From a virus, in IMG/VR virus record IMGVR_UViG_3300029893_000072, positions 1-22,796 of that record: 22,796 bases of DNA; one strand, given 5' to 3'. Below, piece by piece: positions 7,430 through 22,712 of this stretch; the stretch's first letter is position 1; each line of letters starts with the position of its first letter. The notes beneath the pieces were generated by a model, which did not search any database, had not been told where the DNA came from, and saw only the letters and a program-made list of their open reading frames with translations. Both the position numbers and the translations under genes were made by a program.

Positions 7430-7450
7430 TTTATTACCCCTTACAGTTTA

Positions 7451-7484
7451 GTTCAAGAGCTAGTTCAAGAGCTAGGTCAAGAGG
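7451..7484. repeat. 12-bp tandem repeat, about 2.8 copies
   Basis: GTTCAAGAGCTA occurs twice in a row, followed by a partly changed third copy (GGTCAAGAGG). The repeat includes the stop codon of the 84-residue gene (7472-7474) and runs into the gap before the exonuclease gene. Confidence 0.88.
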
Positions 7485-7726
7485 ATGCCAGACCTACGAA
7501 TCACCAGCTTGTCAATCAATAGCTCCACAAGTCCATGAATATCTCCAGGTTCGTAGTAGCCATCAACAATGATATTAAACTCAGCTGCCAACGTTGCAAG
7601 TTGCTCAGTCCAAGTTCCTCCACTCTCGGCCACTCGTATGAGCTTGTCTTGCAGATCAGGATGATTACACAGCTCACGCTGTAATTCAACAAAAGCTTGT
7701 GGAATATAAATCTTTCTAATTGCCAT
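7472..7726 (-). CDS. small protein of unknown function, 84 aa
   Basis: I place the start at ATG 7726 (MAIRKIYIPQAF) rather than at an in-frame ATG 33 bases upstream (7759), because AAGGA lies ten bases before 7726 and nothing resembling a ribosome site lies before 7759. The gene overlaps the 3' end of the upstream zinc-ribbon gene by 11 bases. The protein is mostly helical, with DLQDKLIRVAESG, EQLATLAAEFNIIVDGYYEP and a C-terminal LVELLIDKLVIRRSG. I see no metal, nucleotide-binding or catalytic motif and do not recognise the family. It is co-transcribed with nucleotide and replication genes, so it probably has an accessory role there. The last three codons lie inside a tandem repeat. Confidence 0.65.
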   Translation of the reverse strand: MAIRKIYIPQAFVELQRELCNHPDLQDKLIRVAESGGTWTEQLATLAAEFNIIVDGYYEPGDIHGLVELLIDKLVIRRSGILLT

Positions 7727-7922
7727 CTTGCACCAATCCTTTCTTAGTTGCGCAGGCATTGCAGTACCATACTTGGTTCTTACCTTCGTTGTAGGTTACA
7801 TACATACCTGCCTTCCTCGGCTTGAACTGTTTACATACTTTACAGAATAGGTCTGGCCTGTAGCAAGCAGCTGCGTGTTCTTGCTTACGCTTGCGTTCCT
7901 GCTCTGGTGTCTCGTGTTTCAT
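7716..7922 (-). CDS. zinc-ribbon protein, 68 aa
   Basis: Two CxxC pairs, FCKVCKQFKPR and YCNACATKKG, are separated by about 22 residues with a basic linker, which is the layout of a small zinc ribbon. The N-terminus (ETPEQERKRKQEHAAAC) is a highly charged helix. Such phage proteins are often annotated as zinc-finger or HNH-like; no HNH histidines are seen here, so I do not call a nuclease. Start ATG at 7922 lies 14 bases after the stop of the upstream deaminase gene, with AGGT as a weak ribosome site. Likely a nucleic-acid-binding or protein-binding accessory factor of the replication block. Confidence 0.72.
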   Translation of the reverse strand: MKHETPEQERKRKQEHAAACYRPDLFCKVCKQFKPRKAGMYVTYNEGKNQVWYCNACATKKGLVQDGN

Positions 7923-7936
7923 GCTTACCTAACCTG

Positions 7937-8662
7937 TTAGCCAATCAAGTTCAGTGGGTAATCAGAGCACTTGACTACAAGTTCACCTTGAAGTGCGCGG
8001 CTGGCAGCTTCGTCATATGTCGCAAAAGGTCCAGCTACAAATCTACCAATAGCTGCATCTTCCATACTCTTAGCTACAGCCCACTGGTAATACTGTACAA
8101 GGTTATTGGGTCGGAAGATTGCCCCGGTAACTTCTCTGTTATTGTTGTACGAGCCACGAACTGCATAACTTTTATCTTCTGGAACAGGCTCGTGCTGGAA
8201 GAATACCATCTGCCCGATCCGGTCGCCAGCCTTGAGAACAATCACATGATTCTCGGTTGTATTCTTTAGTTCAAGAGTAAGCACTGAACAATGCCAGCCA
8301 GCGTCTGCCCAGCCTGCGTTGAGGTGATCTAGGCCCATGCGTGCCATGCTACTCTTAAGCTTGTATTCTGCACTGATTGTATCAGGGAGGTTGAACACTT
8401 CAAGGGTCTGGGCAAGAATAAACTGACCAGGATAGAGATTGTAGCCACCTTCGCAGGAGCAATCATGCTCAACCATCTCAAGCTTGTCGCGAGCTGAGAG
8501 GTGCTTGAACCTATTCTCAGGCCGCAGCCTCTCTACAAGGATCTTGGGGCCAAGATGCAAGTCAATAGATGCAGAGTTAACTGCATCGTATACTGCCGGG
8601 CTGCCGGTTATAACTCCGTCTTCTATCAAACGACACAGCTGTGTATAAGAAAGCAATGACAT
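7937..8662 (-). CDS. dcd: dCTP deaminase / dUTPase-like enzyme with C-terminal extension, 241 aa
   Basis: The start is set at ATG 8662 because AAGGAG lies six bases upstream, overlapping the previous stop; a longer frame runs upstream to 8755 but it lies inside the previous gene. Residues 30-39 (SASIDLHLGP), 103-111 (KSSMARMGL), 117-133 (GWADAGWHCSVLTLELK) and 145-155 (AGDRIGQMVFF) match the trimeric dCTP deaminase/dUTPase fold; Glu131 sits where the deaminase catalytic glutamate is expected. The enzyme would make dUMP or dUTP from dCTP, or hydrolyse dUTP, to supply thymidylate for replication. It is unclear which, since DAGW replaces the usual DPGF. Residues from about 187 to 241 (YYQWAVAKSMEDAAIG, FVAGPFATYDEAASRAL) extend past the usual C-terminus and look like a small added domain. 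Confidence 0.82.
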   Translation of the reverse strand: MSLLSYTQLCRLIEDGVITGSPAVYDAVNSASIDLHLGPKILVERLRPENRFKHLSARDKLEMVEHDCSCEGGYNLYPGQFILAQTLEVFNLPDTISAEYKLKSSMARMGLDHLNAGWADAGWHCSVLTLELKNTTENHVIVLKAGDRIGQMVFFQHEPVPEDKSYAVRGSYNNNREVTGAIFRPNNLVQYYQWAVAKSMEDAAIGRFVAGPFATYDEAASRALQGELVVKCSDYPLNLIG

Positions 8663-8672
8663 GTTTAACTCC

Positions 8673-9131
8673 TTAGTTTGTGTCAATAAATGCGAGAGTC
8701 TGCTTCTCGGTCTTAAGGTCAAGAAAGAGCTGTGTCTTTTGAAACTTTGACACATTCTTTGCTCGGCTTGGGGTAAGCCAGGTTATCCAGCGATCTAACA
8801 GAGCTTGCTCTATCAAATAATATGCAGGATATGGCGACTTTGTTTTTTTGATAAATTCAAGTTCAGCTTGCAGAGCCTCGAACGTGAACATATCTGGCAG
8901 CTTTGATAGAACTCTGCGCCTGTCCAGCAATCCTCGCGCTCTGTTAGATCTTGCTTTGCTGTTGGCTGGATCAACTAGCTTATTGGATGGAAGATAGCTG
9001 TCACTGGAAGATCCTACACCTAAGCAAGCTTCCCACTGCCTTGTTGTCAGCTTGACAGCCGGCAGGTGTGTATAGTATCCGTGATCGAATAAGTTTGATT
9101 TGTCAATCATTACAAGTGTGTCTATACTCAT
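8673..9131 (-). CDS. unknown protein downstream of the helicase, 152 aa
   Basis: The ATG at 9131 overlaps the helicase stop as ATGA, so translation is probably coupled. The protein is basic in the centre (NSKARSNRARGLLDRRRVLS) and helical afterwards (FEALQAELEFIKKTKSPYPA, LIEQALLDRWITWL). A TRQWEACLG segment and a late VSKFQKTQLFLDLKTEKQT follow no family that I recognise. Being coupled to the replicative helicase, it could be a helicase loader, primase partner or DNA-binding accessory; nothing in the sequence decides among these. No Cys/His zinc site and no nucleotide-binding loop are visible. An internal Met at residue 8 is an alternative start without a better ribosome site. Confidence 0.65.
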   Translation of the reverse strand: MSIDTLVMIDKSNLFDHGYYTHLPAVKLTTRQWEACLGVGSSSDSYLPSNKLVDPANSKARSNRARGLLDRRRVLSKLPDMFTFEALQAELEFIKKTKSPYPAYYLIEQALLDRWITWLTPSRAKNVSKFQKTQLFLDLKTEKQTLAFIDTN

Positions 9132-10393
9132 TTCTTTAACTCCTTTTCTTCTTGACTCAGGTAAGAGTAATCAAGAGTGTCGCTGGAAGCCTCAACAATC
9201 GGCCGCCGCTTAGGCAAGAAACCCTGGGGGGTGCTTTGTATCTTATCTGCAGCTGTCAGATTCTGTAAGATAACAATCAGATCTGATTGCTTCTCCAGAT
9301 CAGAGTGTACTCGCTTCCAGATCTCTTTCAACTTTACGGTGTCGTGCTGACTGTAGATGAAACTCATAACCTTGTGTGACACATCAGCATGTTTAGCTTT
9401 ACCGAACTCGCCTAAAGCTTTTGGCATCAAATGCTCAGTGTGAGTCAGCACTGTGTTAGCGGCTATCACATCCTCCTCACTAATTACTGCCGAACACCTG
9501 GCAGCCGCATGTATAATACACAGCTTCAACAGGTGTGGAAATCTTCTGTTTGCATACGAATCAAAGCGTACATCATCTTCGAAACCGGGCCAAGTGTTGT
9601 ATATCTTTTCCAATAACTTCTCAGCTGTCGGCTCAAGTGTAGCAAGGCCTCGTACAGTTTCTCTGATTTGCTGCAATCTTGTTACTATTGCAGATGTAGC
9701 TTCCAGACTTGGTGGCTTTGGAAAGGCTATTCTCTTTCCGCTGGGTTCGCCATACACAAGAATAAGACGAGAAAAGAAACCCTGGCCAATTACTTCTGGG
9801 GGGAAAGCAACACTGAATCCAGTAGGAGTATTGCCGCCAAGTATGCTGACAGTGGGATTGTTAATAACCACAGACTTGGAGTTTTTGACTCGATTGCGAT
9901 ACTGGCCAGAAAAATCCCAGAGATTACCGAGAAGAGATATAAACTCCAGATTACCATTTCCAAAGAAGTCATTGAACTCGTCCGCCATAATAAAGATTTC
10001 ATGGGTCTCTTCAGTGGTGTCTCCACCCCACAGATTCTGCTCAAGGATCTTATCAGCTGGCGCAGTTTCTTCTCCTTCCGGGGCGCCGGCCAGATCAAGT
10101 AAGAACTTCTCCTTGGTTGTTTTCTCAGCTGCTATTGTGGTATAGCCAACAGCAGGCAACAAACTTTTGGCTATCTTAATAGCTGTAGATTTGCGCGTGC
10201 CTGGGGTTCCAATCAACATAGCATAGATGTTTGGATAGATACTAGAATGTCCGAACGGAACACAAATATTTCTACCCAACAAAGCACCGATCGTAGCTAT
10301 TGCGCTCCATCTATGGAATGTCTTTGGTACCTCATTAGCATCTGTGTATTGAAGATACTCAGAGAAGAAATCCTCTCTGCTTGAAAGTGACAT
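9128..10393 (-). CDS. DUF3987-type AAA+/RecA-fold helicase, 421 aa
   Basis: The order of motifs is that of DUF3987 phage helicases: an N-terminal FHRWSAIATIGALLGRNICV, Walker A IGTPGTRKSTA (Gly62-Thr70), Walker B IFIMADEF (Asp138-Glu139), a polar sensor-like NNPTVSILGGNTP at 179-190 and GFFSRLILV (Arg209, arginine-finger-like). It should be an ATP-driven hexameric replicative helicase at the fork. No primase catalytic motif or zinc domain is attached, so a primase would have to come from another gene; no obvious one is in the window. GAGGA precedes the ATG by six bases and the gene lies nine bases after the polymerase stop. A more general packaging- or repair-type ATPase role is the alternative, but the neighbour polymerase argues for replication. 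Confidence 0.85.
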   Translation of the reverse strand: MSLSSREDFFSEYLQYTDANEVPKTFHRWSAIATIGALLGRNICVPFGHSSIYPNIYAMLIGTPGTRKSTAIKIAKSLLPAVGYTTIAAEKTTKEKFLLDLAGAPEGEETAPADKILEQNLWGGDTTEETHEIFIMADEFNDFFGNGNLEFISLLGNLWDFSGQYRNRVKNSKSVVINNPTVSILGGNTPTGFSVAFPPEVIGQGFFSRLILVYGEPSGKRIAFPKPPSLEATSAIVTRLQQIRETVRGLATLEPTAEKLLEKIYNTWPGFEDDVRFDSYANRRFPHLLKLCIIHAAARCSAVISEEDVIAANTVLTHTEHLMPKALGEFGKAKHADVSHKVMSFIYSQHDTVKLKEIWKRVHSDLEKQSDLIVILQNLTAADKIQSTPQGFLPKRRPIVEASSDTLDYSYLSQEEKELKK

Positions 10394-10402
10394 ACTAAGT
10401 CC

Positions 10403-12742
10403 TCACTCGGTCTCAGACCAACGATATGCGCCCTTGCCGTCTTTACCAGCTTTCGGGGCTGCCGGCACAGTAAACTCCCTCACCTTACCGTCACAACTCT
10501 TGACTGTGACAGGGATTTCCATGCGCTTACGAACTTCGTCAATAAGATATTCGTGGCCGTTGCGAACTTGGAATAGAATTGAATCGTGAATTTGAGCGAA
10601 TACTTTAATGTTTTTGTGGTGTTCAGGGTGCAGCATCAAATCATAAAATACAGCCATGAATGCTTTATTAAGTGTCATCGCATTCAGCGACTGTGGAGCA
10701 TGTGCAACGTACGCATTAAGCGCAGTCTTGTTTTTAGTCGGGTCACCGAAACAGTAACGTACCCAGCCCGCTGTCGTCGCCTGGTACGGAGCGGAATGTA
10801 CAGCTGATGAGACAATCTTAGCTGTGGTACGGACAGCCGCTTTAATCCACTCATAATACACTCTCGCAATCTTTGGATAAGTTTTATGAAACTGAGCAAG
10901 CAAGTACTCAGCAATTTGCTTAGGTGTCCATAGCTTAGGCAGCTTAAGTAACTTGGCTGCCTTGTAGATATTAACAAGGCCCATAGTGTCAACAAGAACA
11001 TTAGGTCCCATGTTATAGTTGGCTCCATGGTTTACACGCTTAGCTAAGTCTCGCAAGGCTTTGTTGATTGTCTTGCCTACTGCTGCGTCGAAAATGCTTT
11101 CATAAGGAATTCCGAAAAATGCTGAAGCGTTGACGCTGTGAAAATCTCGCTCACCCGTGACGGCGACAATAAGGTCTTCGTCTCCTGATATGAACGCAGT
11201 ATCTCTAGATTCAGCTTGTTCGAGGTCAACTTCTGCAAGTCTGAAATCAGGATCTGCAACGAAGATTCGCTTAACCACATGGCCGCGTGGGACATTTTGG
11301 ATTTGGAGTCCACACCAAAAATGATGCTCTCTACTTGCAAGCCTTCCTGTGTCGGTACCATGCGGAATAAGTGAATATAGGACTCGCTTATTTGAGTTTG
11401 TTCCAAAGAATTTCTCCTTGACTAAGTAGGTTGAAACTATCTTGCGCAGGCCACGAATCTCAAGTATTTCGTTAACAATGCGCGCATTAAGTGGGTGCCT
11501 GTATGCAATCTTATTAAGACTCTTTTCGTCTGAGGATGTAATATCCTCACAACCCAGAACTTTTCTTAACGCCGCATTCTGGGGAGCACTGTTAGTGTTA
11601 AAGTGGCGACCATGATACCTGAAGCCAAGCAGTCTCTCCAGACTACTCTGGTGCTTGGCTATCTCGGTCTCAGCCTCTGTTACAGCAAGTTCAAGTTCTT
11701 GTGTATCGACTCTAATCCCTGTCATCTCACACATATGAGCAGGGAAGTTAAGTGGGAACTCTTGCATGTAATTAGTTCTAGCCCAGGCCGGCGCCTGTGC
11801 GAGCCACTCAAGCACAATCAGTGCTGTGCTGTATGTATCAAGCGCGTTGTACTTGTAGTACTCCATCAAATTAGGAGTAGTTGCCAAGTCCTTCCAGTAC
11901 ATGCTGTCGCGCACATAGAATGCGAACAGCGTTCCAAGATCTTTTGGTAGCTCGCTGTACCAACAGTGGTGCATTGTTGCTGTGTCAAAGAACCAGTTTA
12001 CCGGGCTAGCATTGTAGCGGGCAAGATAGCTTATATCATACTTGCCATTCTGGAACGCCTTTTTGTAGGGAGTGTTGTTGAACTGGCGCATGATATACAC
12101 AGCTTCCATGTTATCAACAGGCAAGACACAACTGTGTGTTCTAACTCCGTGCACTTTATCAAGAGTGCAAAGAGTGTAGCCAATACATACAATGGCAAGA
12201 GGTTGTTGCTTGGTCTCTATGTCACAAGCTACAAAGGCTACACCTCCCAGGAGTTCCGTCTCCTCAACTTGCGTTTCCCACCTCTTGAGAATATTTTGGT
12301 AGCTGCCCACAGTAACAATATCAAAAGACTCAAACCTAGAATAAATACGCCAAGCGGATGGAGATAGAAACTTAGAAAGATGTCTAGCAAGAATAAAGCG
12401 TCCATATGTCACCGTAACAAGTTGTTCAAGGGGGTTTACAATAAGAATTTCGTACCGCACATCTTGAAATACCTTAACAAACACTGAACCTGCATAGTTA
12501 CTGATCTTAGGCTTGAGCTTTTCAGTTGTTGAAAGCGCCATGGAGTCTACCAACTTGTGAAGAAGTTTGGTAGAGGTAGTTACGAGTTGACTAATTCCTC
12601 GCTTTTTGGCCACAAGCAACGCTTCCGCTACTGTGCTAGGCTCCTCAAGCAAGAGCGCAACAGTAGCTGTGCCAACTAGCGGCTTCATCATGTGCAAGTA
12701 GGCTTTATCTTGCGGGGTTCCGATAAAGAGAAGCTTGTTCAT
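10403..12742 (-). CDS. family A DNA polymerase with 3'-5' exonuclease, 779 aa
   Basis: Replicative T7-like DNA polymerase. Residues 1-165 are an unassigned N-terminal region. The exonuclease follows with Asp174/Glu176 (VACDIET), Asp236 (NGKYDISYL) and Tyr298-Asp302 (YKYNALDT). The palm carries motif A EVDLEQAESR (Asp506), motif B RDLAKRVNHGANYNMG (Arg564, Lys568, Tyr576) and motif C QIHDSILFQV (His719, Asp720). In motif B the aromatic residue that follows the lysine by four in T7 and E. coli enzymes is His572, and the final glycine of the motif (YG) is Asn577; in motif C the last acidic residue is Ser721. All are variants, but the catalytic aspartates are present, so an active enzyme is expected. 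Start ATG has a modest TGGAAA site. It lies directly upstream of the helicase in the same transcript. Confidence 0.95.
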   Translation of the reverse strand: MNKLLFIGTPQDKAYLHMMKPLVGTATVALLLEEPSTVAEALLVAKKRGISQLVTTSTKLLHKLVDSMALSTTEKLKPKISNYAGSVFVKVFQDVRYEILIVNPLEQLVTVTYGRFILARHLSKFLSPSAWRIYSRFESFDIVTVGSYQNILKRWETQVEETELLGGVAFVACDIETKQQPLAIVCIGYTLCTLDKVHGVRTHSCVLPVDNMEAVYIMRQFNNTPYKKAFQNGKYDISYLARYNASPVNWFFDTATMHHCWYSELPKDLGTLFAFYVRDSMYWKDLATTPNLMEYYKYNALDTYSTALIVLEWLAQAPAWARTNYMQEFPLNFPAHMCEMTGIRVDTQELELAVTEAETEIAKHQSSLERLLGFRYHGRHFNTNSAPQNAALRKVLGCEDITSSDEKSLNKIAYRHPLNARIVNEILEIRGLRKIVSTYLVKEKFFGTNSNKRVLYSLIPHGTDTGRLASREHHFWCGLQIQNVPRGHVVKRIFVADPDFRLAEVDLEQAESRDTAFISGDEDLIVAVTGERDFHSVNASAFFGIPYESIFDAAVGKTINKALRDLAKRVNHGANYNMGPNVLVDTMGLVNIYKAAKLLKLPKLWTPKQIAEYLLAQFHKTYPKIARVYYEWIKAAVRTTAKIVSSAVHSAPYQATTAGWVRYCFGDPTKNKTALNAYVAHAPQSLNAMTLNKAFMAVFYDLMLHPEHHKNIKVFAQIHDSILFQVRNGHEYLIDEVRKRMEIPVTVKSCDGKVREFTVPAAPKAGKDGKGAYRWSETE

Positions 12743-12807
12743 AAGTTTCCACTGGTCCAGTTTGATGCAGATTCCAATTTCGTAAGCTATGATACCACTT
12801 CAGATGC

Positions 12808-12912
12808 CTAGATAGCGTAGGCTGGATCAAGCGACGCTAGCTTACGCACGGTCATGCCATAGTACTTACCATACGGCATCCTGCCGTCCCAACTAAGGTG
12901 AAAGTCTGCCAT
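12808..12912 (-). CDS. 34-residue ExoX-C/DUF3820-like fragment
   Basis: A short ORF with a near-perfect ribosome site (AGGAG, six bases before ATG 12912), just after a terminator. The translation is MADFHLSWDGRMPYGKYYGM followed by TVRKLASLDPAYAI. The 'MPyGKyyGm.v..la..DPaY' run resembles the start of small DUF3820 or exodeoxyribonuclease X C-terminal-like proteins (MPFGKYKG...DPsYL.W), which are normally 60-80 residues. Here the frame stops straight after DPAYAI, so the expected end is missing. In the +1 frame the next bases read RHLKWYHSLRNWNLHQTG and continue to overlap the polymerase start. It is therefore either a true micro-protein, a decayed gene or a frameshift. The strong ribosome site suggests that it is translated. 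Confidence 0.6.
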   Translation of the reverse strand: MADFHLSWDGRMPYGKYYGMTVRKLASLDPAYAI

Positions 12913-12933
12913 ACTATTCTCCTAGTACACAGT

Positions 12934-12970
12934 AAAAAAGGACCTGAAAGTGTTACCTCTCAAGTCCTTT
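12934..12970 (-). terminator. rho-independent terminator after the SSB-like gene
   Basis: Read on the minus strand, AAAGGAC-TTGA at 12970-12960 pairs with TCAGGTCCTTT at 12947-12937 (10 pairs around one mismatch), followed by TTTTTT (12939-12934). It lies between the stop of the 143-residue gene (12992) and the 34-residue ORF (12912). It would raise the ratio of the upstream small-protein message to the polymerase message. Confidence 0.85.
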
Positions 12971-12991
12971 GTGCTACTGGATACTATCTAG

Positions 12992-13423
12992 TTAGTCAAC
13001 CATCAGCGACTTGATAGACATGTACTTCTTATCCTTGTCATTCTTGTCGGCGCGCAGTCCGGTAGTCACAGTAACTTCCATGCCATTTGCAGCTTGGATG
13101 GTTTCACCGATGCTGCCGGTGCCGCAAGCAGCTGCCAGAGGAAGCATAACCTGCTTGAGATTGCCTTGGCCGAACTCGTTGTCCAGCATGAACGCAACAC
13201 CGCACTCGTCACCCGGAGCCGGAGTTTCGTCAGAAACGTTGGCCAGTTCAACAGTATCAATCATTTTCATCTTCATCTCAACAGCCGGATGCTGATTGAT
13301 TTCCTTGGTGCCGAAAGTAACAGAGACACGGTGCGTGCCGGGCGGGAAAACTTTGAACTCAGGCAGATCGGCCAGATCTTCCAGTTGAGCATCGAGCAGA
13401 GCGTTCAGAGTTTCGTTAGACAT
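12992..13423 (-). CDS. small abundant-type protein, possible ssDNA-binding protein, 143 aa
   Basis: ATG 13423 has AAAGGT nine bases upstream. The N-terminus is ETLNALLDAQLEDLADLPEF, followed by a beta-rich core: FPPGTHRVSVTFGTKEI, HPAVEMKMKMIDTVEL, VAFMLDNEFGQGNLKQVML and MEVTVTTGLRADKNDKDKKY. I know this pattern from unannotated phage proteins located in replication modules, but I have no family name for it. The terminator directly behind it (a sign of a highly expressed monocistronic message), the neighbour Sak4-like ATPase and the lack of any other SSB in the window make a single-stranded DNA-binding role likely. This is inference. No OB-fold aromatic pattern can be proved by eye, and the acidic C-terminal tip typical of SSBs is short (KSLMVD). 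Confidence 0.7.
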   Translation of the reverse strand: MSNETLNALLDAQLEDLADLPEFKVFPPGTHRVSVTFGTKEINQHPAVEMKMKMIDTVELANVSDETPAPGDECGVAFMLDNEFGQGNLKQVMLPLAAACGTGSIGETIQAANGMEVTVTTGLRADKNDKDKKYMSIKSLMVD

Positions 13424-13458
13424 TTGAATTACCTTTCAAAAAATGAATGAAATAAAAT

Positions 13459-13487
13459 TACTACAGGTTACTACAGGTTACTACAGT
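13459..13487. repeat. 10-bp tandem repeat, about 2.7 copies
   Basis: CTACAGGTTA is repeated twice, with a third partial CTACAGTGTA, in the 83-base gap between the DUF3310 gene and the SSB-like gene. The last copy forms the small palindrome CTACAGTGTAG. Confidence 0.85.
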
Positions 13488-13506
13488 GTAGACAACAATT
13501 TATAGC

Positions 13507-13752
13507 CTAGTTGTCCAGCGGCTCTTGAAGAACCTCAATCAGCTTTTGCAAATAGTGCTGAGCTTTCTTGAAGTCCTGCAATTCGAAGTTACCTTTTTTC
13601 AGTCTGGCGCGCATGAGGTACTTAAGTACATTGCCGCGATAGAACCCAATACGCTGCTCGCGCGGCCAGGTATCAATAACATCCCAAGGCTCAACAGAAA
13701 GAGATGTGTAATGAGCTCCAGCAACTTGGTAAGAGTTAGCAGGTGTAGTCAC
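13507..13752 (-). CDS. DUF3310 protein, 81 aa
   Basis: The start codon is GTG (GTGA overlap with the upstream stop), with AGGAG about eight bases before it. The pattern AGAHYTSLSVEPWDVIDTWP, GFYRGNVLKYLMRARLKKGN and DFKKAQHYLQKLIEVL is the small helical DUF3310 domain found across phages (sometimes listed as a nucleotide kinase or as part of such a protein). Its conserved 'HY', 'GN..KYL.R...K....D..KA..YL' residues are all there. Biochemical function is not established. Its place, right after a Sak4-like ATPase and before an SSB-like gene, puts it among replication and recombination functions. Confidence 0.85.
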   Translation of the reverse strand: MTTPANSYQVAGAHYTSLSVEPWDVIDTWPREQRIGFYRGNVLKYLMRARLKKGNFELQDFKKAQHYLQKLIEVLQEPLDN

Positions 13753-14630: not shown

Positions 14631-14632
14631 TA

Positions 14633-15673
14633 TTAAATCCTTTCAAGAGTGGTCTGGATCAGATCTTCAAGATCAATTTCGAACATGTACGTTTCTTTGT
14701 TAAGTTCGTCAACAGTTGCTTCAGTAAGCGGAGCAGTAAGTGAAGCGGTATCCAGCTTGCATGTTGTGAAGTACTCGCACTGGCTGAAGTAGTTATAGCA
14801 GGATTCGCCGCGAGTTGGAAAGTAATTCAGTGTTGCGTAGGTTTCAACCTGGCGAGTATCCAACATAAGTTCAGTAACCCAGCCGGCCCGCTCGTAGACA
14901 CCCTTCTCAAAAGGCAGCGTTTCAAATTCCATGGAACTGCTCTTGTATACAAGATACAGTACTTGGTAATCAGTGAGGCCAGGATACAGGTAATCAAGGA
15001 TTACAGAGTAGCCCACAGCCTGGCTGGAGTTCTTGTACATGGCCTGGTCAACATACTTAGCGCCGGTAGTCTTAAGTTCCAACACCATAACTGCGCCAGT
15101 CTCTTTGTGAACAAGTACAGCATCAACAAAGCCACGTACTTTGAAGCCACCAGCAACTGTGATCCTGAAACTAAGTTCGCAGGCTGGCACATCTTCAGAT
15201 GTTTCAGTTGCACCTTGCGGAGTTACATACGCAAGCTCCCACTCATCAAGGAATCCGTTGCTGTGCATGTCTCTGAACTTGAGAACAGCGGCAAGCGCAA
15301 GAAAGAATGATTTCTTTTTCTTTGTATCTTCTGCTAGCAAGTCAGGGTCCCAGAACTGGAACAATTCCAGCATCAGTTCATTGAGTTGTTTGCCTTGCAG
15401 CACAAGCTGAATACCAAGTCCAACAACGTGCCCAAAAGCAAAGGTTACAGATTTGATTTCAGAGTCAGCTGACTTGGGCGCACGCAGTCTATACAACTGG
15501 AACTTGCGCGGACATTCGTGCAGAGTTAGCAGCGAAGAGTAAGACAGATTCTTTAGCCTGGGATCAAGCTCACCTTCAGCAAGCTCAATAACAGAAGACT
15601 TATCTACTGGCAGTTCCTCATTGAGGAAACCAGCTAGGGAGTCTGCAAGTGTGATAGTTTCAAAGGAGCCCAT
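14633..15673 (-). CDS. Cas4/RecB-like PD-(D/E)XK nuclease with Fe-S cysteines, 346 aa
   Basis: The nuclease core is SSLLTLHECPRKFQLYRL (residues 46-63, Cys54), GHVVG (His82), RGFVDAVLV (Asp184), VLELKTTGAK (Glu199, Lys201) and SQAVGYS (Gln218). Cys54 together with Cys292, Cys299 and Cys305 (SCYNYFSQCEYFTTC) makes the four-cysteine set of a 4Fe-4S cluster, as in Cas4, AddB and Dna2 nucleases. It would degrade or resect DNA ends with a metal ion at Asp184/Glu199/Lys201. The start overlaps the 3' end of the previous gene by 14 bases, and it is followed directly by the Sak4-like gene, so resection plus annealing is a sensible pairing. Host DNA breakdown is an alternative role. No CRISPR genes are near. 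Confidence 0.85.
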   Translation of the reverse strand: MGSFETITLADSLAGFLNEELPVDKSSVIELAEGELDPRLKNLSYSSLLTLHECPRKFQLYRLRAPKSADSEIKSVTFAFGHVVGLGIQLVLQGKQLNELMLELFQFWDPDLLAEDTKKKKSFFLALAAVLKFRDMHSNGFLDEWELAYVTPQGATETSEDVPACELSFRITVAGGFKVRGFVDAVLVHKETGAVMVLELKTTGAKYVDQAMYKNSSQAVGYSVILDYLYPGLTDYQVLYLVYKSSSMEFETLPFEKGVYERAGWVTELMLDTRQVETYATLNYFPTRGESCYNYFSQCEYFTTCKLDTASLTAPLTEATVDELNKETYMFEIDLEDLIQTTLERI

Positions 15674-16076
15674 TTGCTTCTCTCAATCTATGAATGTGAT
15701 TAGATGAATAAGCTGAGTTGACTTGCTTAAGTTTGGTGTGATTCTTGTACAGCCAATCTACAAGATACCTATCGGCACCAGGCAGTTTCAGTATATGTGC
15801 GATGCTTTGAAGTTCATTTGTCATGAACTCCAGTGGTACATCCGGCACAGGCTGGCTGGTCCACTCAGTTGTATCTATTACCCCTATCCAAGCTATCAGC
15901 TGCTTGAAGTAGAAGTAGTTATCTAAGTACAGACTATACCTGTCTCGTCTTGAGTACTTGAAATAAATGTAAAGTACTGTACTAAGCGGTGTTGGGATCT
16001 CTTGCTGTGCGTGAAACTCAGCCTGTGCAGCTGCTTCTTGTTTCCTGCGAGCTAGGAACTCTTCTAGAGCAGACAT
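15660..16076 (-). CDS. unknown protein, 138 aa
   Basis: Begins MSALEEFLARRKQEAAAQAE (an amphipathic, charged helix), followed by an aromatic-rich region (LYIYFKYSRRDRYSLYLDNY, FYFKQLIAWIGVID) and a C-terminal half ending HTKLKQVNSAYSSNHIHRL. No Cys-based metal site, nucleotide loop or membrane segment is visible. I do not recognise a family. The start has no clear ribosome site and is 18 bases downstream of the previous stop, so translation may depend on that gene. It overlaps the nuclease start by 14 bases, which ties the two together in expression. The aromatic tract may contact nucleic acid or another protein, but this is a guess. Confidence 0.65.
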   Translation of the reverse strand: MSALEEFLARRKQEAAAQAEFHAQQEIPTPLSTVLYIYFKYSRRDRYSLYLDNYFYFKQLIAWIGVIDTTEWTSQPVPDVPLEFMTNELQSIAHILKLPGADRYLVDWLYKNHTKLKQVNSAYSSNHIHRLREANGLL

Positions 16077-16080
16077 GGTG

Positions 16081-16101
16081 CTAGCAGCTAGAAGCTAGAA
16101 G
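16081..16101. repeat. 7-bp tandem repeat, three copies
   Basis: CTAGCAG, CTAGAAG, CTAGAAG in direct succession. The third copy contains the TAG stop (16095-16097) of the 89-residue gene and the rest fills the gap before the next start. Confidence 0.85.
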
Positions 16102-16364
16102 TCATCGGCTGTCATAGAAGCAGCAACTTTTGTTGCGCTTTTTTTCTTAGCGGCCGTTGCGGCGCCTATCTGGGTATTAGTATGCATGATAAGACCCTGC
16201 ACAATGGTGCCGATTTCATCTTCATCGAGAAGAGTTACCACATTGGGATCTTCTTTGAGCTGCTTGTGAATACGTTGCAGCAAGGTTGGAAGCTGTGGAT
16301 GAGCTGCCAGGATAGCTTGCTCCAGCTCGGCAATGTTGCTTTTAACTTGATCACTGAATTCCAT
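16095..16364 (-). CDS. small helical protein, 89 aa
   Basis: ATG 16364 is preceded by TTAGGAGATCTATT, a strong ribosome site. The protein is an alpha-helical molecule (NIAELEQAILAAHPQLPTLL, RIHKQLKEDPNVVTLLDEDE) with a basic, Ala-rich low-complexity tail (GAATAAKKKSATKVAASMTA) that may bind nucleic acid or be unstructured. A family is not recognised. It lies among replication and recombination genes and shares the GGAGAT..TAT leader with several genes further right. Could be an adaptor for a larger enzyme; nothing catalytic is seen. Confidence 0.65.
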   Translation of the reverse strand: MEFSDQVKSNIAELEQAILAAHPQLPTLLQRIHKQLKEDPNVVTLLDEDEIGTIVQGLIMHTNTQIGAATAAKKKSATKVAASMTADDF

Positions 16365-16382
16365 AATAGATCTCCTAATCTG

Positions 16383-16622: not shown

Positions 16623-16629
16623 GCTTACT

Positions 16630-16908
16630 TCACTCAACAACAATGTTATATTGCTTGCTGATCTGCTTCGGCTCACGCATCATGAATGTAACTTTGAGGC
16701 CTTCATCTGTTTCTGAGAGAACTTCAAAGCCAACAACTTTGCCTTCACTGATTGACTCACCAGCAACAGCTTGAAATTGCTTATCCATGCGCGACTTGAG
16801 AGCGCGAAGGCTCCCATACAAGGTATGTAACTCATATGTTGAAGGCACTGTGAGAGTGACTCTCTTATCTTCAAGTAAGAGATTGATAATTTCAGTGGCT
16901 GTTGCCAT
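16630..16908 (-). CDS. small unknown protein after tRNA-Thr, 92 aa
   Basis: Start set at ATG 16908 (MATATEIINLLLEDKRVTLT) because GGAG lies nine bases before it; the in-frame ATG at 16923 lacks a ribosome site. Sequence after that: PSTYELHTLYGSLRALKSRM, a Gly-rich VAGESISEGKVVGFEV and TFMMREPKQISKQYNIVVE. A beta-alpha-beta arrangement is likely. No family is recognised. The tRNA ends 29 bases before the start, so the gene is read as part of the message processed at the tRNA. It is the first protein of the small-gene string leading to the recombination genes. Confidence 0.65.
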   Translation of the reverse strand: MATATEIINLLLEDKRVTLTVPSTYELHTLYGSLRALKSRMDKQFQAVAGESISEGKVVGFEVLSETDEGLKVTFMMREPKQISKQYNIVVE

Positions 16909-16937
16909 ACCTGAGCACTCCATTCTGCATAATGAGG

Positions 16938-17013
16938 TGGTGCCGGCAGCAAGAATCGAACTCGCGACCTTCTGATTACAAATCAGTTGCTCTACCTACT
17001 GAGCTATGCCGGC
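16938..17013 (-). tRNA. tRNA-Thr (anticodon UGU), 76 nt with encoded CCA
   Basis: The minus strand gives a full cloverleaf. The acceptor stem GCCGGCA pairs with TGCCGGC, followed by discriminator A and an encoded CCA (16940-16938). The D arm is TAGCTCAGTAGGTAGAGCA, and the anticodon loop is TTTGTAA with anticodon TGT. The T arm is GCGAG-TTCGATT-CTTGC. One A-A mismatch tops the anticodon stem (ACTGA/TCAGA). It closely resembles the enterobacterial UGU threonine tRNA. It is transcribed in line with the leftward genes and must be cut from the long message. Genomic CCA is common in phage-borne tRNAs from proteobacterial hosts. Confidence 0.97.
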
Positions 17014-17042
17014 ACTGTGTTTGCACTGTGTTTGCACTGTGT
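17012..17042. repeat. 11-bp tandem repeat, about 2.8 copies, at the tRNA 5' side
   Basis: GCACTGTGTTT twice, then GCACTGTGT. The first two bases of the repeat are the tRNA's own acceptor bases, so the repeat unit begins at the 5' edge of the tRNA gene. Confidence 0.87.
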
Positions 17043-17051
17043 AAGTAACTT

Positions 17052-17095
17052 CCCACACAGCCCAGATAAGATACAAACTATCCAGGCTGTGTAGG
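17052..17095 (-). other. hairpin between the 236-aa gene and tRNA-Thr
   Basis: CCCACACAGCC (17052-17062) faces GGCTGTGTAGG (17085-17095): 11 pairs on the minus-strand RNA with one G-U wobble, around a 22-base loop. There is no T-run behind it on the minus strand, so it is not a standard terminator. It may be a processing signal or attenuator ahead of the tRNA. Confidence 0.6.
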
Positions 17096-17111
17096 CTGTT
17101 ACCTACAGCTA

Positions 17112-17822
17112 TTACAGGTTGTTCATCAAATCCTCTTCGCCGGACTTCATGAAGGTGTCAGCCTTTTGTTGCAGGAACTTCACACATTCCATGTACTGTT
17201 CAGCATTCGGGCTGGTGTTGACATACAGATCCAGGCGCTCCGTGATAACCTTGAGAACCTTTTTGTTGGTCTTAACCGGCTGGAGCTTGGCACGCAAGAT
17301 GACAGCAACTTTCTCTTGCTGTTCCTTGCTCTTGCCAGTGACTGCCGGCATGACTTCAACATAGTCAGCAGAGAAGTCTTCCCAAACTTCCTTCGGAATG
17401 CCAGCACCACGACGAGTAGTAACAGGCATGTTGGCAATGGATTCCCAAGTAACCTGATCCAGCGGGAAGTTATCTTGGGAAATCTCTTCGTTCTCATTAA
17501 CAATGTCACGAGCACGATCGAGGACGATGTTAGCAGTCGCTTCCAGCAACAGGTCCAGTTCCTTGCCACCCTTCTCGAAGATGGCGACCAGACCTTCAAC
17601 GGAAGGAACAGGGAGAGCCAGTTGCACCGTAGGCCGCTTGGTTTCAACTCCGGTCGGCTTGCCTTCGCTGTCAACTTCTTTCACAGTACGGAAGTTGAAC
17701 TTCACTTCCTTTACCTGAACTTTGTTGTCATAGTTGGCAATAATACGCTGGTGCAGGGCGACTTTGGCTTCAGCATCGTTGGTTTCAACTCCGTTTGCGG
17801 TGGTGTTGGCGGTGTCGTTCAT
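17112..17822 (-). CDS. conserved-type phage protein of unknown function, 236 aa
   Basis: ATG 17822 follows GAGGA eight bases upstream. The N-terminus is polar and low complexity (MNDTANTTANGVETNDAEAK), then VKEVKFNFRTVKEVDSEGK, a long helical middle (VEGLVAIFEKGGKELDLLLE) and a C-terminal helical half (KVLKVITERLDLYVNTSPNA). No metal or nucleotide motif is visible. It is the first gene after the promoter at 17918-17946, with an untranslated leader of about 90 bases, so it is probably strongly expressed. Proteins of this type (acidic, helical, of about 240 residues) are found in phage replication regions without known function. It could bind DNA, RNA polymerase or a partner, but that remains open. 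Confidence 0.68.
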   Translation of the reverse strand: MNDTANTTANGVETNDAEAKVALHQRIIANYDNKVQVKEVKFNFRTVKEVDSEGKPTGVETKRPTVQLALPVPSVEGLVAIFEKGGKELDLLLEATANIVLDRARDIVNENEEISQDNFPLDQVTWESIANMPVTTRRGAGIPKEVWEDFSADYVEVMPAVTGKSKEQQEKVAVILRAKLQPVKTNKKVLKVITERLDLYVNTSPNAEQYMECVKFLQQKADTFMKSGEEDLMNNL

Positions 17823-17917
17823 TTGTGATTCCTCTTTGCAAAAAGAAAGGTTGGTTAGTTTGTTCAGTCCAGTGTGTTTACTGGTTTATACTGCCCTGTT
17901 CCCGACAGTGAGAGCAC

Positions 17918-17946
17918 AGTATGCCACAGGCGCCGAGGCTTGTCAA
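17918..17946 (-). promoter_or_regulatory. sigma70-type promoter
   Basis: On the minus strand TTGACA (17946-17941) is a perfect -35 box, followed after 17 bases by CATACT (17923-17918), four of six matches to TATAAT. It lies in a 154-base gap downstream of the helicase stop and upstream of the 236-residue gene, and so would drive 17822-16630 including the tRNA and on into the recombination block. The gap holds no ORF. Confidence 0.72.
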
Positions 17947-17976
17947 GTGGCACTTTTGATCTTATTTAGGTGAGGC

Positions 17977-19650
<1,674 letters not shown>

Positions 19651-19663
19651 AATAGAATCTCCT

Positions 19664-20023
19664 TCAGATTGAAATGATTACATAGGAACTAAGCTGCAAA
19701 TCGGTTATCGGTTTTCTGAAAGAAAGCGAGACTTGCTTAGCATTTTTAACTTGCAAATAGCTTGCATTCCAGATAGGAATGTATGTGTCATCCTGATGGA
19801 CAAGCAAGTGATGCGGATGTTGCTGGAGCTTTGTTAGTAGATAGCTCGGGTCCCAATAGAGAAGATAGTATTTCTCCAAAGCATCTCCGAACTGGGCTGT
19901 CGGAAACTGCTTCTCTTCTATGAGAAGTTGCTGTATTACTTGCCTGGAGAGTCCGTACTTTTGGTATGCCAGGATGGAAGGAAACACTGACGCTGCCTTG
20001 CTGGTTTTGTTAGAATATGACAT
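19664..20023 (-). CDS. unknown protein, 119 aa
   Basis: AAGGAG eight bases before ATG 20023 lies in the last codons of the 343-residue gene (stop 20027). N-terminus MSYSNKTSKAASVFPSILAY, then GLSRQVIQQLLIEEKQFPTA, a Tyr-rich YYLLYWDPSYLLTKLQQ and a beta-rich C-terminus ending LSSYVIISI. The QQLLIEEKQFP stretch could be a helix-turn-helix-like or wing element, but it fits no consensus that I trust. No catalytic residues were identified. It is paired with the 343-residue gene upstream and the helicase downstream, which suggests a replication- or recombination-related partner protein. Confidence 0.65.
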   Translation of the reverse strand: MSYSNKTSKAASVFPSILAYQKYGLSRQVIQQLLIEEKQFPTAQFGDALEKYYLLYWDPSYLLTKLQQHPHHLLVHQDDTYIPIWNASYLQVKNAKQVSLSFRKPITDLQLSSYVIISI

Positions 20024-20026
20024 GAC

Positions 20027-21058
20027 TCACTCCTTACTAGAATCATTACTAGAACTAGACTCAGCCAGTCGCCACTTGGCTAGAGCCTTTATATACTCAA
20101 ACTCGCTTCGGTATTCGCTCCGAACAGGCTTGTGAGTTGGAGCTCCTACTGAGAGTGCTTTGATATTAGCTTGCAAGATTGAATCATCGTCTGGAATGAT
20201 GTTGTATAGGCCAGTAGTTCCTGTCCCAGCCGCGGCAATATCCCAGTCTCCAATATCTAAGAGAATGTCTTGCTTCTCTCCAGCATCCCGTAATACTTTC
20301 ATTAACTTATAAGAGAAGATAGTTCCTGCCGGGATGTTCTGTTCACAGTGTTCGATTAGTTCTTGCAAGTCCTCTCTCCTGATTGACCACACTTCTTCTT
20401 CCCTACAGGCGCGAACAATGATTTGTTGCCAGTAAGAGGACAAAGAGATTGGTTCTTGTTTTCCTTCTATAGATACCTTGAATTCAGGGAAGTCTCCAGC
20501 AAGTGCTGCCCAGTGTGATAGAACTGTTGCATACTGGCGAACATCTTTGTTTACATCCTTAACTAGTCTCTCAAGGATGTTTTCTTTGTGTGTGATCTCA
20601 GAGTGCAGTTGTTGCTGTCTGTATCCTGTAGCAAAATCATGTAAGTTTTGTTTCCAGACATGAATCCAGCTATCTAGTTGCTCTAATCTATGTGAGCCAG
20701 ATTTGCTAGAAATAACGAATTTAGCTGGATGGAAACTAGGAACCAAGATAGAATTGAGTTGTTGCACAACAGTAGTTAGTTCTGCTATATGCAATGCTAC
20801 AATCTGTTGTGTGCCCGCATGAAACTCAGCTGGGGTTCTGAATTCTACGTTGCCTGTAGAATTCAACAAAGCTAGAGTTAGAAGATAAGAGGACTGCGCA
20901 TCTAGTGATTGCTCACTGAAATATCGCTCTGACAGTTTATACAACTCTGATGCTGGCGCATCAAATATAGGATGGTATGATTCACGAGAGTGCAAGTATA
21001 ATGGTACATATTCGCACTTGAACTGCAATCCACTTAGAGAACATAGGATCTTTGCCAT
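20027..21058 (-). CDS. unknown protein, 343 aa
   Basis: The largest unrecognised gene of the right-hand block. It begins MAKILCSLSGLQFKCEYVPL and YHPIFDAPASELYKLSERYF, has a Ser-rich tail (AKWRLAESSSSNDSSKE) and a helical middle (HSEITHKENILERLVKDVNK, QELIEHCEQNIPAGTIFSYK). Cysteines at residues 6 and 15 are isolated, so no zinc ribbon is obvious. I see no Walker, HNH, PD-(D/E)XK or polymerase motif. Its start has AAGGAACCTATCATG, the shared leader. It is followed, with overlapping ribosome site, by the 119-residue gene, so the two are translated together. Possible roles include helicase partner, replication initiator or host-takeover protein; none is supported by a motif. Confidence 0.7.
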   Translation of the reverse strand: MAKILCSLSGLQFKCEYVPLYLHSRESYHPIFDAPASELYKLSERYFSEQSLDAQSSYLLTLALLNSTGNVEFRTPAEFHAGTQQIVALHIAELTTVVQQLNSILVPSFHPAKFVISSKSGSHRLEQLDSWIHVWKQNLHDFATGYRQQQLHSEITHKENILERLVKDVNKDVRQYATVLSHWAALAGDFPEFKVSIEGKQEPISLSSYWQQIIVRACREEEVWSIRREDLQELIEHCEQNIPAGTIFSYKLMKVLRDAGEKQDILLDIGDWDIAAAGTGTTGLYNIIPDDDSILQANIKALSVGAPTHKPVRSEYRSEFEYIKALAKWRLAESSSSNDSSKE

Positions 21059-21082
21059 GATAGGTTCCTTCTCTTGAGTTGG

Positions 21083-21274
21083 TTAGTGTGTCAGCTTCCA
21101 TTGGATTTCAAACTGCTCGTAGAATTCTGCCACTGGCTTTACTACCCTACCACATACAGGCTCTGTTGGTAGGAGCACAAACTGATCTACAAAGTGACAT
21201 GAGATGTCTTGTTGAATATGCAAGAGTTGGTCACACGACGGAGCAAGATCAGCTGGATGAATGTGTTTTGCCAT
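21083..21274 (-). CDS. small unknown protein, 63 aa
   Basis: ATG 21274 is preceded by GGAAGGAATCTATC, an excellent ribosome site of the shared leader type. The protein carries three Cys, two of them distant (LAPSCDQLLHIQQDISCHFV and EPVCGRVVK), and ends EQFEIQWKLTH. No recognised family. It is one of a string of very small genes that phages use for early host-directed functions. It starts 38 bases after the 53-residue gene stop and ends 24 before the 343-residue gene start. Confidence 0.6.
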   Translation of the reverse strand: MAKHIHPADLAPSCDQLLHIQQDISCHFVDQFVLLPTEPVCGRVVKPVAEFYEQFEIQWKLTH

Positions 21275-21312
21275 GATAGATTCCTTCCATTTGAACTAGG
21301 TGTTATGCACCA

Positions 21313-21474
21313 TCAGCGCCAGTGCAGCGTGACGCATCCGTACCCCTCGCGTTTTGCCTTAAAGAAGTTCCACGCCGCAGCAATCCAGCTTTCGCCGCGC
21401 CAAAATTCCTCGTAGGCGTAGGCATCGCGCCAATCCACAAATTTCCAAACTTGAATTTCCCAAGTGTTGCCCAT
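21313..21474 (-). CDS. small conserved-type phage protein, 53 aa
   Basis: A short ORF below the usual length limit, with AGGAGAGTGAACG before ATG 21474. It reads MGNTWEIQVWKFVDWRDAYA, then YEEFWRGESWIAAAWNFFKA and ends KREGYGCVTLHWR. The pattern 'WEI.VW..VD...Y.....W.GES...A...FFKAK...GCVT.rWR' is a Trp/Phe-rich type often seen in phage genomes as hypothetical protein. The G+C content is higher than its neighbours (about 54% by hand count against about 40%), with codons such as CGC and GCG, pointing to separate acquisition. Function unknown. Confidence 0.75.
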   Translation of the reverse strand: MGNTWEIQVWKFVDWRDAYAYEEFWRGESWIAAAWNFFKAKREGYGCVTLHWR

Positions 21475-21505
21475 CGTTCACTCTCCTGTCTGTTGCATAA
21501 CGATG

Positions 21506-21637
21506 TTAGTTGAAGGTAAGACTTACTGGGCATTTCGGGGCTGGTCTGCCTTGGAAGTCAAAGGCAAAAACCAGAACTTGCTTGTATCCACCCTTTGTGC
21601 CAATGTAGATTGGCTTGAAGCACCAAATTACTGACAT
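21506..21637 (-). CDS. micro-protein, 43 aa
   Basis: ATG 21637 has the full AAGGAGATTCTATC leader. The protein is MSVIWCFKPIYIGTKGGYKQ, then VLVFAFDFQGRPAPKCPVSL and TFN, beta-rich with one Cys pair 29 residues apart. Thirty-one bases separate its stop from the start of the 53-residue gene. The strong leader is the main reason to call this a real gene. Family not recognised. Confidence 0.65.
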   Translation of the reverse strand: MSVIWCFKPIYIGTKGGYKQVLVFAFDFQGRPAPKCPVSLTFN

Positions 21638-21649
21638 GATAGAATCTCC

Positions 21650-21871
21650 TTAGTTTGAAATCAGATACTTGGTTGCAAAGTCAAAAGCTGCCGGGTAAGA
21701 CATTCTCTTAAATTGCTCAAGCAATGGATGCTTGATTGTTGCATAATGTTTTGAACAGATAATGCTCCCCAAGTTTTCCTTGTGGTATCCACAAGCATAT
21801 AGTGAAGAAAAGAACTGATCCTCACATTTCTGGTATTGCGATAGTGTGATGGTGGGAAGATTGAGTGTCAT
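21650..21871 (-). CDS. small unknown protein, 73 aa
   Basis: The ATG has the shared GGAGATTCTATC leader and is the first gene behind the promoter at 21942-21970. The protein contains four Cys and two His spread over CEDQFFSSLYACGYHKENLG and IICSKHYATIKHPLLEQF; Cys16, Cys27, Cys39 with His30 and His42 could make a small metal site, but the spacing is not that of a known finger. Ends AFDFATKYLISN. Family unknown. First position in the transcript and small size suit an early host-interaction protein, by inference. Confidence 0.65.
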   Translation of the reverse strand: MTLNLPTITLSQYQKCEDQFFSSLYACGYHKENLGSIICSKHYATIKHPLLEQFKRMSYPAAFDFATKYLISN

Positions 21872-21897
21872 GATAGAATCTCCAATGATGTGTTGAT

Positions 21898-21930
21898 GAT
21901 GTACTACTGATGTACTACTGATGTACTACT
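21898..21930. repeat. 11-bp tandem repeat, three perfect copies
   Basis: GATGTACTACT three times without a mismatch. It lies between the -10 box of the promoter (21942) and the ribosome site of the 73-residue gene, that is, in the untranslated leader. One turn of DNA per unit would put protein sites on one face. Confidence 0.9.
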
Positions 21931-21941
21931 GAGAAAAAGAA

Positions 21942-21970
21942 AGCATACCATATTTTAATGTGGCTGTCAA
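21942..21970 (-). promoter_or_regulatory. sigma70-type promoter
   Basis: On the minus strand a perfect TTGACA (21970-21965) is followed after exactly 17 bases, which include an A+T-rich TTAAAATAT, by TATGCT (21947-21942), four of six matches to TATAAT. It starts just downstream of the stop of the metallopeptidase gene (21984) and would drive the 73-residue gene and those following it. Same design as the promoter at 17918-17946. Confidence 0.75.
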
Positions 21971-21983
21971 GTCCCCTCATTTA

Positions 21984-22424
21984 TCAGAGCAAGTCAAACA
22001 GGTCATCAATAGTAGTTACTTGCACATGATCTGACTTTGTGGGCTTTTTATTTGCCACTCCAGCGACATTAGCGTTACGCGGTTTATATCTATATTCATA
22101 GCATTGAAACTCCTCTGGGCATATCCGCTTAAACTCTTGCATGAATCCAGCACCATGAATGCTTCTGGTAACATCGAACGCATGGGCCATCTCGTGACAG
22201 AGATAGTATATCCAATATCCAGGCCGATTATCATTTATTGCCCAAGTTGGAATTGTTATCACTTTGTTGTGATAATAACAACGTCCTCGATTTTGTTTCA
22301 CTATGTAGACTCTCCAGCCATCTTCTAATAGAAGCATGAGATAGTATCCTACATGTTCCAAAGCCGTTGCGTCAATTAAAAAGAGTTGTGTCTGTAGTGT
22401 ATCGATGTTGGCTGGCTTTCTCAT
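21984..22424 (-). CDS. SprT/M48-like HExxH metallopeptidase-type protein, 146 aa
   Basis: The zinc motif is in YYLCHEMAHAFDVTRSIHGA (His-Glu-x-x-His, then a second His in HG), followed by AGFMQEFKRICPEEFQCYEY. That is the layout of SprT-like and small M48-like domains, in which the third ligand comes from the later histidine. The region before it (CYYHNKVITIPTWAI) has the usual strand. AGGAGACACAC precedes ATG 22424, with no promoter obvious from motifs but an A+T-rich region upstream. SprT-like proteins act on DNA-protein crosslinks or host proteins; the phage role here is unknown. The N-terminus (MRKPANIDTLQTQLFLIDAT) has no signal peptide, so it acts in the cytoplasm. Confidence 0.8.
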   Translation of the reverse strand: MRKPANIDTLQTQLFLIDATALEHVGYYLMLLLEDGWRVYIVKQNRGRCYYHNKVITIPTWAINDNRPGYWIYYLCHEMAHAFDVTRSIHGAGFMQEFKRICPEEFQCYEYRYKPRNANVAGVANKKPTKSDHVQVTTIDDLFDLL

Positions 22425-22464
22425 GTGTGTCTCCTAAGTTAGAGAGTAAACTATGATCCCTGTA

Positions 22465-22491
22465 TGTAACACTTGTAACACTTGTAACACT
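22465..22491. repeat. 9-bp tandem repeat, three perfect copies
   Basis: TGTAACACT three times, followed by TGTGACT, in the region upstream of the metallopeptidase gene. The multiple-of-three length keeps any frame through it open, which gives a spurious ORF on the minus strand. Confidence 0.87.
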
Positions 22492-22712
22492 TGTGACTAC
22501 TGTGACTGATGAGCACATGAGACGATAGGTCCCTATCCTATATTGACCCTGACCCTGGCATCTCCTGTAACTTATATCTCCTATCCTCACCCCAGTAATT
22601 ATGCCTCATACAGTCTGGTATGTTATTTCTTCCATTCTGCTCTATGCATCATTTACCCCCCACTTAAAAATTTAATTAATAATATACCCTATATAAATAA
22701 GATGCTATATAT

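What the first reader, a model, noticed from the sequence alone, without database searches (positions are those of the whole stretch)
7451..22491. Short tandem triplications at gene junctions, all different in sequence
At 7451-7484 (12 bp), 13459-13487 (10 bp), 16081-16101 (7 bp), 17012-17042 (11 bp), 21898-21930 (11 bp) and 22465-22491 (9 bp), a unit occurs about three times in a row, always at a junction of the minus-strand genes and never in the plus-strand block. The sequences are unrelated, so one recombining element is not the cause. Either local slippage during replication fixes triplets in gaps, or the architecture itself (about three turns of helix) is selected, for example as spacing or protein-binding arrays. 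I know of no described class that fits exactly.
Basis: partly seen in the sequence, partly recalled or inferred. Interest (0 to 1): 0.7.

Follow-up and report, generated by a model that had tools for sequence, protein, structure and literature searches.

The report
Slippage-born tandem repeats in phage gaps
This bacterial virus and its relatives keep gaining short stretches of DNA copied head-to-tail, which survive mostly between genes because there they break no reading frame; the copies behave like accidents of DNA copying rather than a designed control element, although this viral group gains them unusually often.

Summary
The six arrays are real and far beyond chance. Tandem Repeats Finder recovers all six and a seventh inside a helicase gene (CGCTGT x5.5). 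Shuffled windows give 0.05 comparable arrays each; the window has six. The "junction-only" pattern is mainly a reading-frame filter. Across 97 records of the same uncultured phage clade (1.55 Mb), 79 of 88 coding arrays have units divisible by three, against 27 of 76 gap arrays (p = 2e-13), and all 76 gap units differ. Relatives 88% alike differ in presence of an array at the same junction. A 97.7%-identical pair differs at four arrays by whole units or sub-units (7, 33, 12, 12 bp). Unit lengths show no peak at 10-11 bp, so helical spacing is not supported. Best explanation: recurrent tandem duplication and expansion, probably replication slippage, filtered by selection. The clade itself is enriched: 38 gap arrays of at least 2.7 copies in 110 kb of gap, against 3 in 129 kb of control gap (p = 3e-10); one relative has 17 gap arrays of any copy number. 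The closest described phenomenon is the tandem repeats of archaeal Borg elements. What raises the rate is unknown; the polymerase proofreading motifs are present.

The parts
7449..7483 (-). 12-bp array x2.9 (GCTCTTGAACTA on the minus strand); first copy holds the TAG stop of gene 7472-7759, later copies repeat in-frame TAG and TAA; 20 nt upstream of the exonuclease gene 6857-7429
13458..13486 (-). 10-bp array x2.9 (CCTGTAGTAA) between gene 13507-13752 and the single-stranded-DNA-binding-like (position-based name) gene 12992-13423, ending 35 nt before its ATG
16080..16101 (-). 7-bp array x3.1, imperfect (TTCTAGC); first copy holds the TAG stop of gene 16095-16364; abuts the start of gene 15660-16076
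17012..17042 (-). 11-bp array x2.8 (AAACACAGTGC) abutting the 5' end of tRNA-Thr(TGT)
16938..17013 (-). tRNA-Thr (anticodon TGT)
21897..21932 (-). 11-bp array x3.3 (GTAGTACATCA) in the leader downstream of a sigma-70-like promoter, 26 nt before gene 21650-21871
21942..21970 (-). sigma-70-like promoter TTGACA-17-TATGCT with TG before the second hexamer (consensus match only)
22465..22494 (-). 9-bp array x3.3 (AGTGTTACA) 41 nt upstream of the SprT-like gene 21984-22424
17977..19650 (-). Dda-like helicase gene that carries the in-frame array
10403..12742 (-). family A DNA polymerase with the three 3'-5' exonuclease motifs (D174/E176, N232-Y235-D236, Y298-D302); candidate enzyme for slippage; used to collect relatives

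Best explanation
The arrays are independent, recent tandem duplications of whatever 5-13 bp happened to lie at the spot, expanded to about three copies, most likely by replication slippage (strand misalignment during phage DNA synthesis). They arise across the genome. Units not divisible by three survive almost only in gaps, where they break no reading frame; units of 6, 9 or 12 bp also survive inside genes, mainly (inferred) at tolerant sites such as linkers and gene ends. Arrays near a gene's 3' end often carry or create its stop codon and so straddle it. Copy number keeps changing by whole units. Shown: the arrays, their excess over chance, the frame filter, lack of shared units, presence/absence and copy-number differences between close relatives, and enrichment in this clade over controls. 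Inferred: that slippage rather than recombination is the mechanism, and that most arrays are neutral. Unknown: why this clade, and some members above all, have so many.
For: Frame filter: 79/88 coding arrays but 27/76 gap arrays have 3n units, Fisher p = 2e-13. 76 of 76 gap units differ. L029 carries (AGCAACAGT)x3.6 upstream of the SSB-like gene where L028, 88% identical, has a single partial copy and is 27 bp (3 x 9) shorter. L085 and L086 (97.7% identical) differ by 7 bp (one unit) with identical flanks and by 33 bp (three 11-bp units) in gaps, and by 12 bp at two coding arrays (one 12-bp unit; two 6-bp sub-units). The window's in-gene array is in frame, in a linker that varies among homologues. 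Arrays scatter over the polymerase tree. No RNA-fold signal (z from +0.5 to -1.5) and no Rfam match but the tRNA. The same gap arrays occur in L322, L323 and L324 from three separate metagenomes, which speaks against assembly error.
Against: No close relative of the window was found (best polymerase identity 58%), so copy-number change was seen in relatives, not at the six sites themselves. All six window arrays lie within 41 nt upstream of a start codon or tRNA, which mere tolerance would not demand. Straddling of the upstream stop is about two-fold above uniform placement (22 vs 10.7 expected of 56); I explain this by arrays carrying or creating the stop, which was seen directly only for L029/L028. 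The SSB-junction gap has 15 arrays per 10 kb against 5.5 for all other gaps (p = 0.004), though gaps of 51-100 bp in general have about 12. The density differs strongly among members and its cause is unknown.
Confidence: 0.78

Rival explanations
1. The arrays are functional leader or spacer elements: three short repeats placed before starts act as binding arrays, translation leaders or spacing devices, with only the architecture conserved.
For: All six window arrays lie within 41 nt upstream of a start codon or tRNA; one sits directly downstream of a promoter; the SSB junction carries arrays of unrelated sequence in about 10 of 73 relatives.
Against: Most relatives have nothing at these junctions; L028 lacks what L029 has; periods are not centred on a helical turn; no fold signal; the SSB-junction density is near that of other gaps of similar length; the same process makes in-frame arrays inside genes.
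Confidence: 0.07
2. Stop-codon insurance: arrays triplicate the stop codon of the upstream gene, giving stops in one or all frames to prevent read-through.
For: The 7449 array repeats an in-frame stop; the 7-bp period at 16080 puts TAG in all three frames; 22 of 56 same-strand gap arrays begin at the upstream stop.
Against: Arrays away from the stop show no enrichment for stop triplets (23 observed, 22.6 expected); the 17012 array has none; in L029 the array itself appears to have brought the stop in.
Confidence: 0.03
3. Assembly or sequencing artefact of metagenome contigs.
For: All members are uncultured metagenome contigs, and no reads could be inspected.
Against: Arrays are 18-46 bp, far below read length; the reading-frame filter is biological; three independent assemblies share the same gap arrays; random contigs of the same collection lack the density.
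Confidence: 0.02
4. The arrays arise by recombination (single-strand annealing or end-joining during phage recombination, for example through the Sak4-like protein and PD-(D/E)XK nuclease) rather than by polymerase slippage; the rest of the account is the same.
For: The window encodes a Sak4-like annealing protein and a recombination-type nuclease; tandem duplication of about 10 bp can follow either route.
Against: Nothing here separates the two; very short units favour slippage (general knowledge).
Confidence: 0.1

Closest known systems
Tandem repeats of Borg archaeal extrachromosomal elements (PMC9879509)
   Same: Perfect head-to-tail repeats scattered over the genome; units virtually all unique; unit lengths in genes divisible by three (100% there, 79/88 here), only 14-38% in gaps there (27/76 = 36% here); [quoted passage not shown] unit number varies within populations or between close relatives; recent and independent origin; rate is genome-specific.
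   Different: Borg arrays were defined as at least 50 nt and 3 units; those here are 18-46 bp (at least 2.7 copies). Borg units are enriched in A; only a weak trend here (0.355 vs 0.328). Borgs are very large archaeal elements with a family B polymerase; these are roughly 44-kb phages with a family A polymerase.
Bacterial VNTR / minisatellite loci made by replication slippage
   Same: Short units, copy number changing by whole units, intergenic or in-frame in genes.
   Different: Studied loci are usually a few per bacterial genome; here there are up to 17 gap arrays in 40 kb of one phage.
Iterons and other protein-binding repeat arrays
   Same: About three short direct repeats in a gap, some near a promoter.
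   Different: Iterons share one sequence recognised by one protein; here every array has its own sequence.

Membership tests
Borg-type tandem repeats (PMC9879509) | Units in genes divisible by three, units in gaps mostly not | tested here: met
   79/88 coding vs 27/76 gap, p = 2e-13
Borg-type tandem repeats (PMC9879509) | Unit sequences unique to each array | tested here: met
   76 distinct units of 76 gap arrays
Borg-type tandem repeats (PMC9879509) | Fast evolving: unit number or presence differs between close relatives | tested here: met
   L029/L028 and L085/L086; not testable at the window's own sites
Borg-type tandem repeats (PMC9879509) | At least 50 nt and 3 units | tested here: not met
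   window arrays span 22-36 bp; clade gap arrays of at least 2.7 copies 18-46 bp
Borg-type tandem repeats (PMC9879509) | A-enriched units on the coding strand | tested here: inconclusive
   A 0.355 in units vs 0.328 in gaps, 662 bases
VNTR made by replication slippage | Copy number changes by whole units | tested here: met
   7, 33 and 12 bp differences equal whole units; a second 12-bp difference equals two 6-bp sub-units
VNTR made by replication slippage | Origin by polymerase slippage | not testable with these tools
   needs an experiment
Iteron / protein-binding array | Same sequence in all arrays of the genome | tested here: not met
   all units differ
Helically phased array | Unit length near 10-11 bp | tested here: not met
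   peak at 8 bp; 8 of 42 arrays at 10-11 bp

The most novel reading that the evidence does not exclude
A clade of small podovirus-like phages has an unusually high rate of tandem-repeat birth, set by something in its replication machinery or host, which keeps remodelling gene ends, leaders and protein linkers: a phage counterpart of Borg tandem repeats.
Probability: 0.35. Interest if true: 0.55.

Novelty: new member of a known kind. Interest (0 to 1): 0.36.

Why it matters
It replaces a tempting functional reading (a new class of junction element) with a simple mutational one. It also shows that one uncultured phage clade carries about fifteen times as many multi-copy gap arrays per base of gap as control phages. 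That clade could serve to ask what sets the rate of tandem-duplication birth, a question left open for Borg elements.

Tried and rejected
Missing proofreading as the cause: all three exonuclease motifs are present in the window polymerase and near-invariant in the clade. A gene that explains array-rich genomes: 17 variable gene clusters tested over 18 near-complete contigs; the best (p = 0.003, uncorrected) is a head-protein-like gene present in array-poor genomes that fades by divergence; a MazG gene seen only in three array-poor genomes is too few to judge. RNA structure at the arrays: nothing beyond shuffles. Rfam: only the tRNA. Shared unit motif: none. A-enrichment as in Borgs: weak trend only. 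Remainder beyond whole copies as a microhomology signal: shaped by the detection threshold, so dropped. Queries with the helicase (17977-19650) and the plus-strand protein 4852-6195 found no relatives by pattern search. Close cultured relatives: none.

Full report
What is there. The window is a 22.8-kb fragment of an uncultured phage (a virus record). Its minus-strand block encodes an exonuclease, dCTP-deaminase-like protein, primase/helicase-like protein, family A DNA polymerase, Sak4-like annealing protein, PD-(D/E)XK nuclease and Dda-like helicase. Annotated phages with the nearest polymerase are Aeromonas phage P5, Polaromonas phage Tiera, EBPR podovirus 3 and the PaP2 group at 27-31% amino-acid identity; the closest uncultured relatives reach 58%. 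The gene I call SSB (12992-13423) has no family match; the name rests on its place and is only a label.

The observation. TRF recovers all six arrays, and shuffles show they are not chance. Two corrections change the picture. First, there is a seventh array, CGCTGT x5.5 at 19558-19590, in frame in the helicase linker, giving an alternating Ala-Thr stretch. Second, the plus-strand block has almost no gap sequence, so its lack of arrays means nothing.

The frame filter. I collected relatives by primase and polymerase and extended the longer contigs. Over 97 non-redundant records (1.55 Mb, 112 kb of gap by a simple ORF caller), exact arrays with units of 5-30 bp number 76 in gaps and 88 in coding sequence. 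In coding sequence 79 of 88 have units divisible by three; in gaps 27 of 76 do, about the one third expected without a filter (p = 2e-13). All 76 gap units differ. So the process is not confined to junctions: gaps are where any unit length can survive.

Change between relatives. L029 and L028 are 88% identical. Upstream of the SSB-like gene, L029 has 3.6 copies of AGCAACAGT, whose first copy supplies the stop of the upstream gene; L028 is 27 bp (three units) shorter, has one partial copy, and its frame runs on past that point. The direction of change is not settled: more distant relatives lack the array but align poorly there. L085 and L086 are 97.7% identical and differ at four arrays: one 7-bp unit in a gap with identical flanks, three 11-bp units in a gap, and 12 bp at each of two coding arrays. 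By contrast, gap arrays of 14 bp x2.0 and 12 bp x2.4 are the same in three contigs from three metagenomes (L322-L324), so the arrays are not assembly noise.

Is the clade special? Gap arrays of at least 2.7 copies: 38 in 110 kb of gap for the clade without the window, against 3 in 129 kb for controls (T7-like phages, T1, four distant polymerase relatives, and a sample of viral contigs drawn by an arbitrary 15-mer); p = 3e-10. Without the richest contig it is 28 against 3, p = 2e-7. Against the arbitrary sample alone it is 38 against 1 in 30 kb, p = 0.0015. The window has 4 in 2.16 kb, above its clade (p = 0.008), though it was picked for its arrays. Members vary from none (G012, G015, G016, G033) to 17 gap arrays (G022) in 40 kb. 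Base composition was not matched between clade and controls.

Position and architecture. Unit lengths of multi-copy gap arrays run from 5 to 13 bp with a peak at 8, so helical phasing is not supported. At the SSB junction, 11 arrays in 7.3 kb exceed the average of other gaps (p = 0.004), but gaps of similar length have nearly the same density, and most relatives have no array there. Arrays begin at the upstream stop codon about twice as often as uniform placement predicts (22 against 10.7 of 56), without enrichment of stop triplets in arrays away from the stop; arrays in a gene's tail that carry or create its stop would do this. RNA folding at the six sites is unremarkable.

Mechanism and rivals. 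The account that fits is birth by tandem duplication and change by slippage or recombination, filtered by reading frame and tolerance. Slippage is inferred from unit size and unit-multiple changes; recombination by annealing is not excluded. The polymerase keeps its proofreading motifs, and no gene convincingly tracks array density.

What is known. Borg elements of archaea show the same signature: unique units, in-gene units divisible by three, 14-38% in gaps divisible by three, arrays starting in ORF ends, unit number varying within populations (PMC9879509). The arrays here are shorter and show only a weak A trend, so they work like Borg repeats but do not meet that paper's definition. The eight literature searches found no report of this pattern in a phage clade; that is limited evidence, as only open-licence papers were searched.

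Verdict. The remaining point of interest is the clade-level enrichment, whose cause is unknown.

Noticed in passing
L278 and L279 (contig IMGVR_UViG_3300033232_000028): 17 exact tandem arrays in about 3.6 kb of gap, the densest phage seen here; a good model for studying how they form.
   Followed up: partly
window 17823-17976, minus strand: Sigma-70-like promoter TTGACA-17-CATACT with TG before the second hexamer (17946-17918) in a long gap that carries no array.
   Followed up: no
window 12937-12970, minus strand: Strong terminator-like hairpin with a T run after the SSB-like gene.
   Followed up: no
window 21984-22424, minus strand: SprT-like protein (weak Pfam match, below the curated cut-off) whose sequence reads HEMAH, a metalloprotease-like motif.
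   Followed up: no
L066 100-285: Long imperfect 9-bp repeat region inside a coding sequence at the contig end, also in the overlapping locus L296.
   Followed up: no
L253 6731-7138: MazG-like gene seen only in three array-poor relatives (G016, G019, G033); too few to judge.
   Followed up: partly
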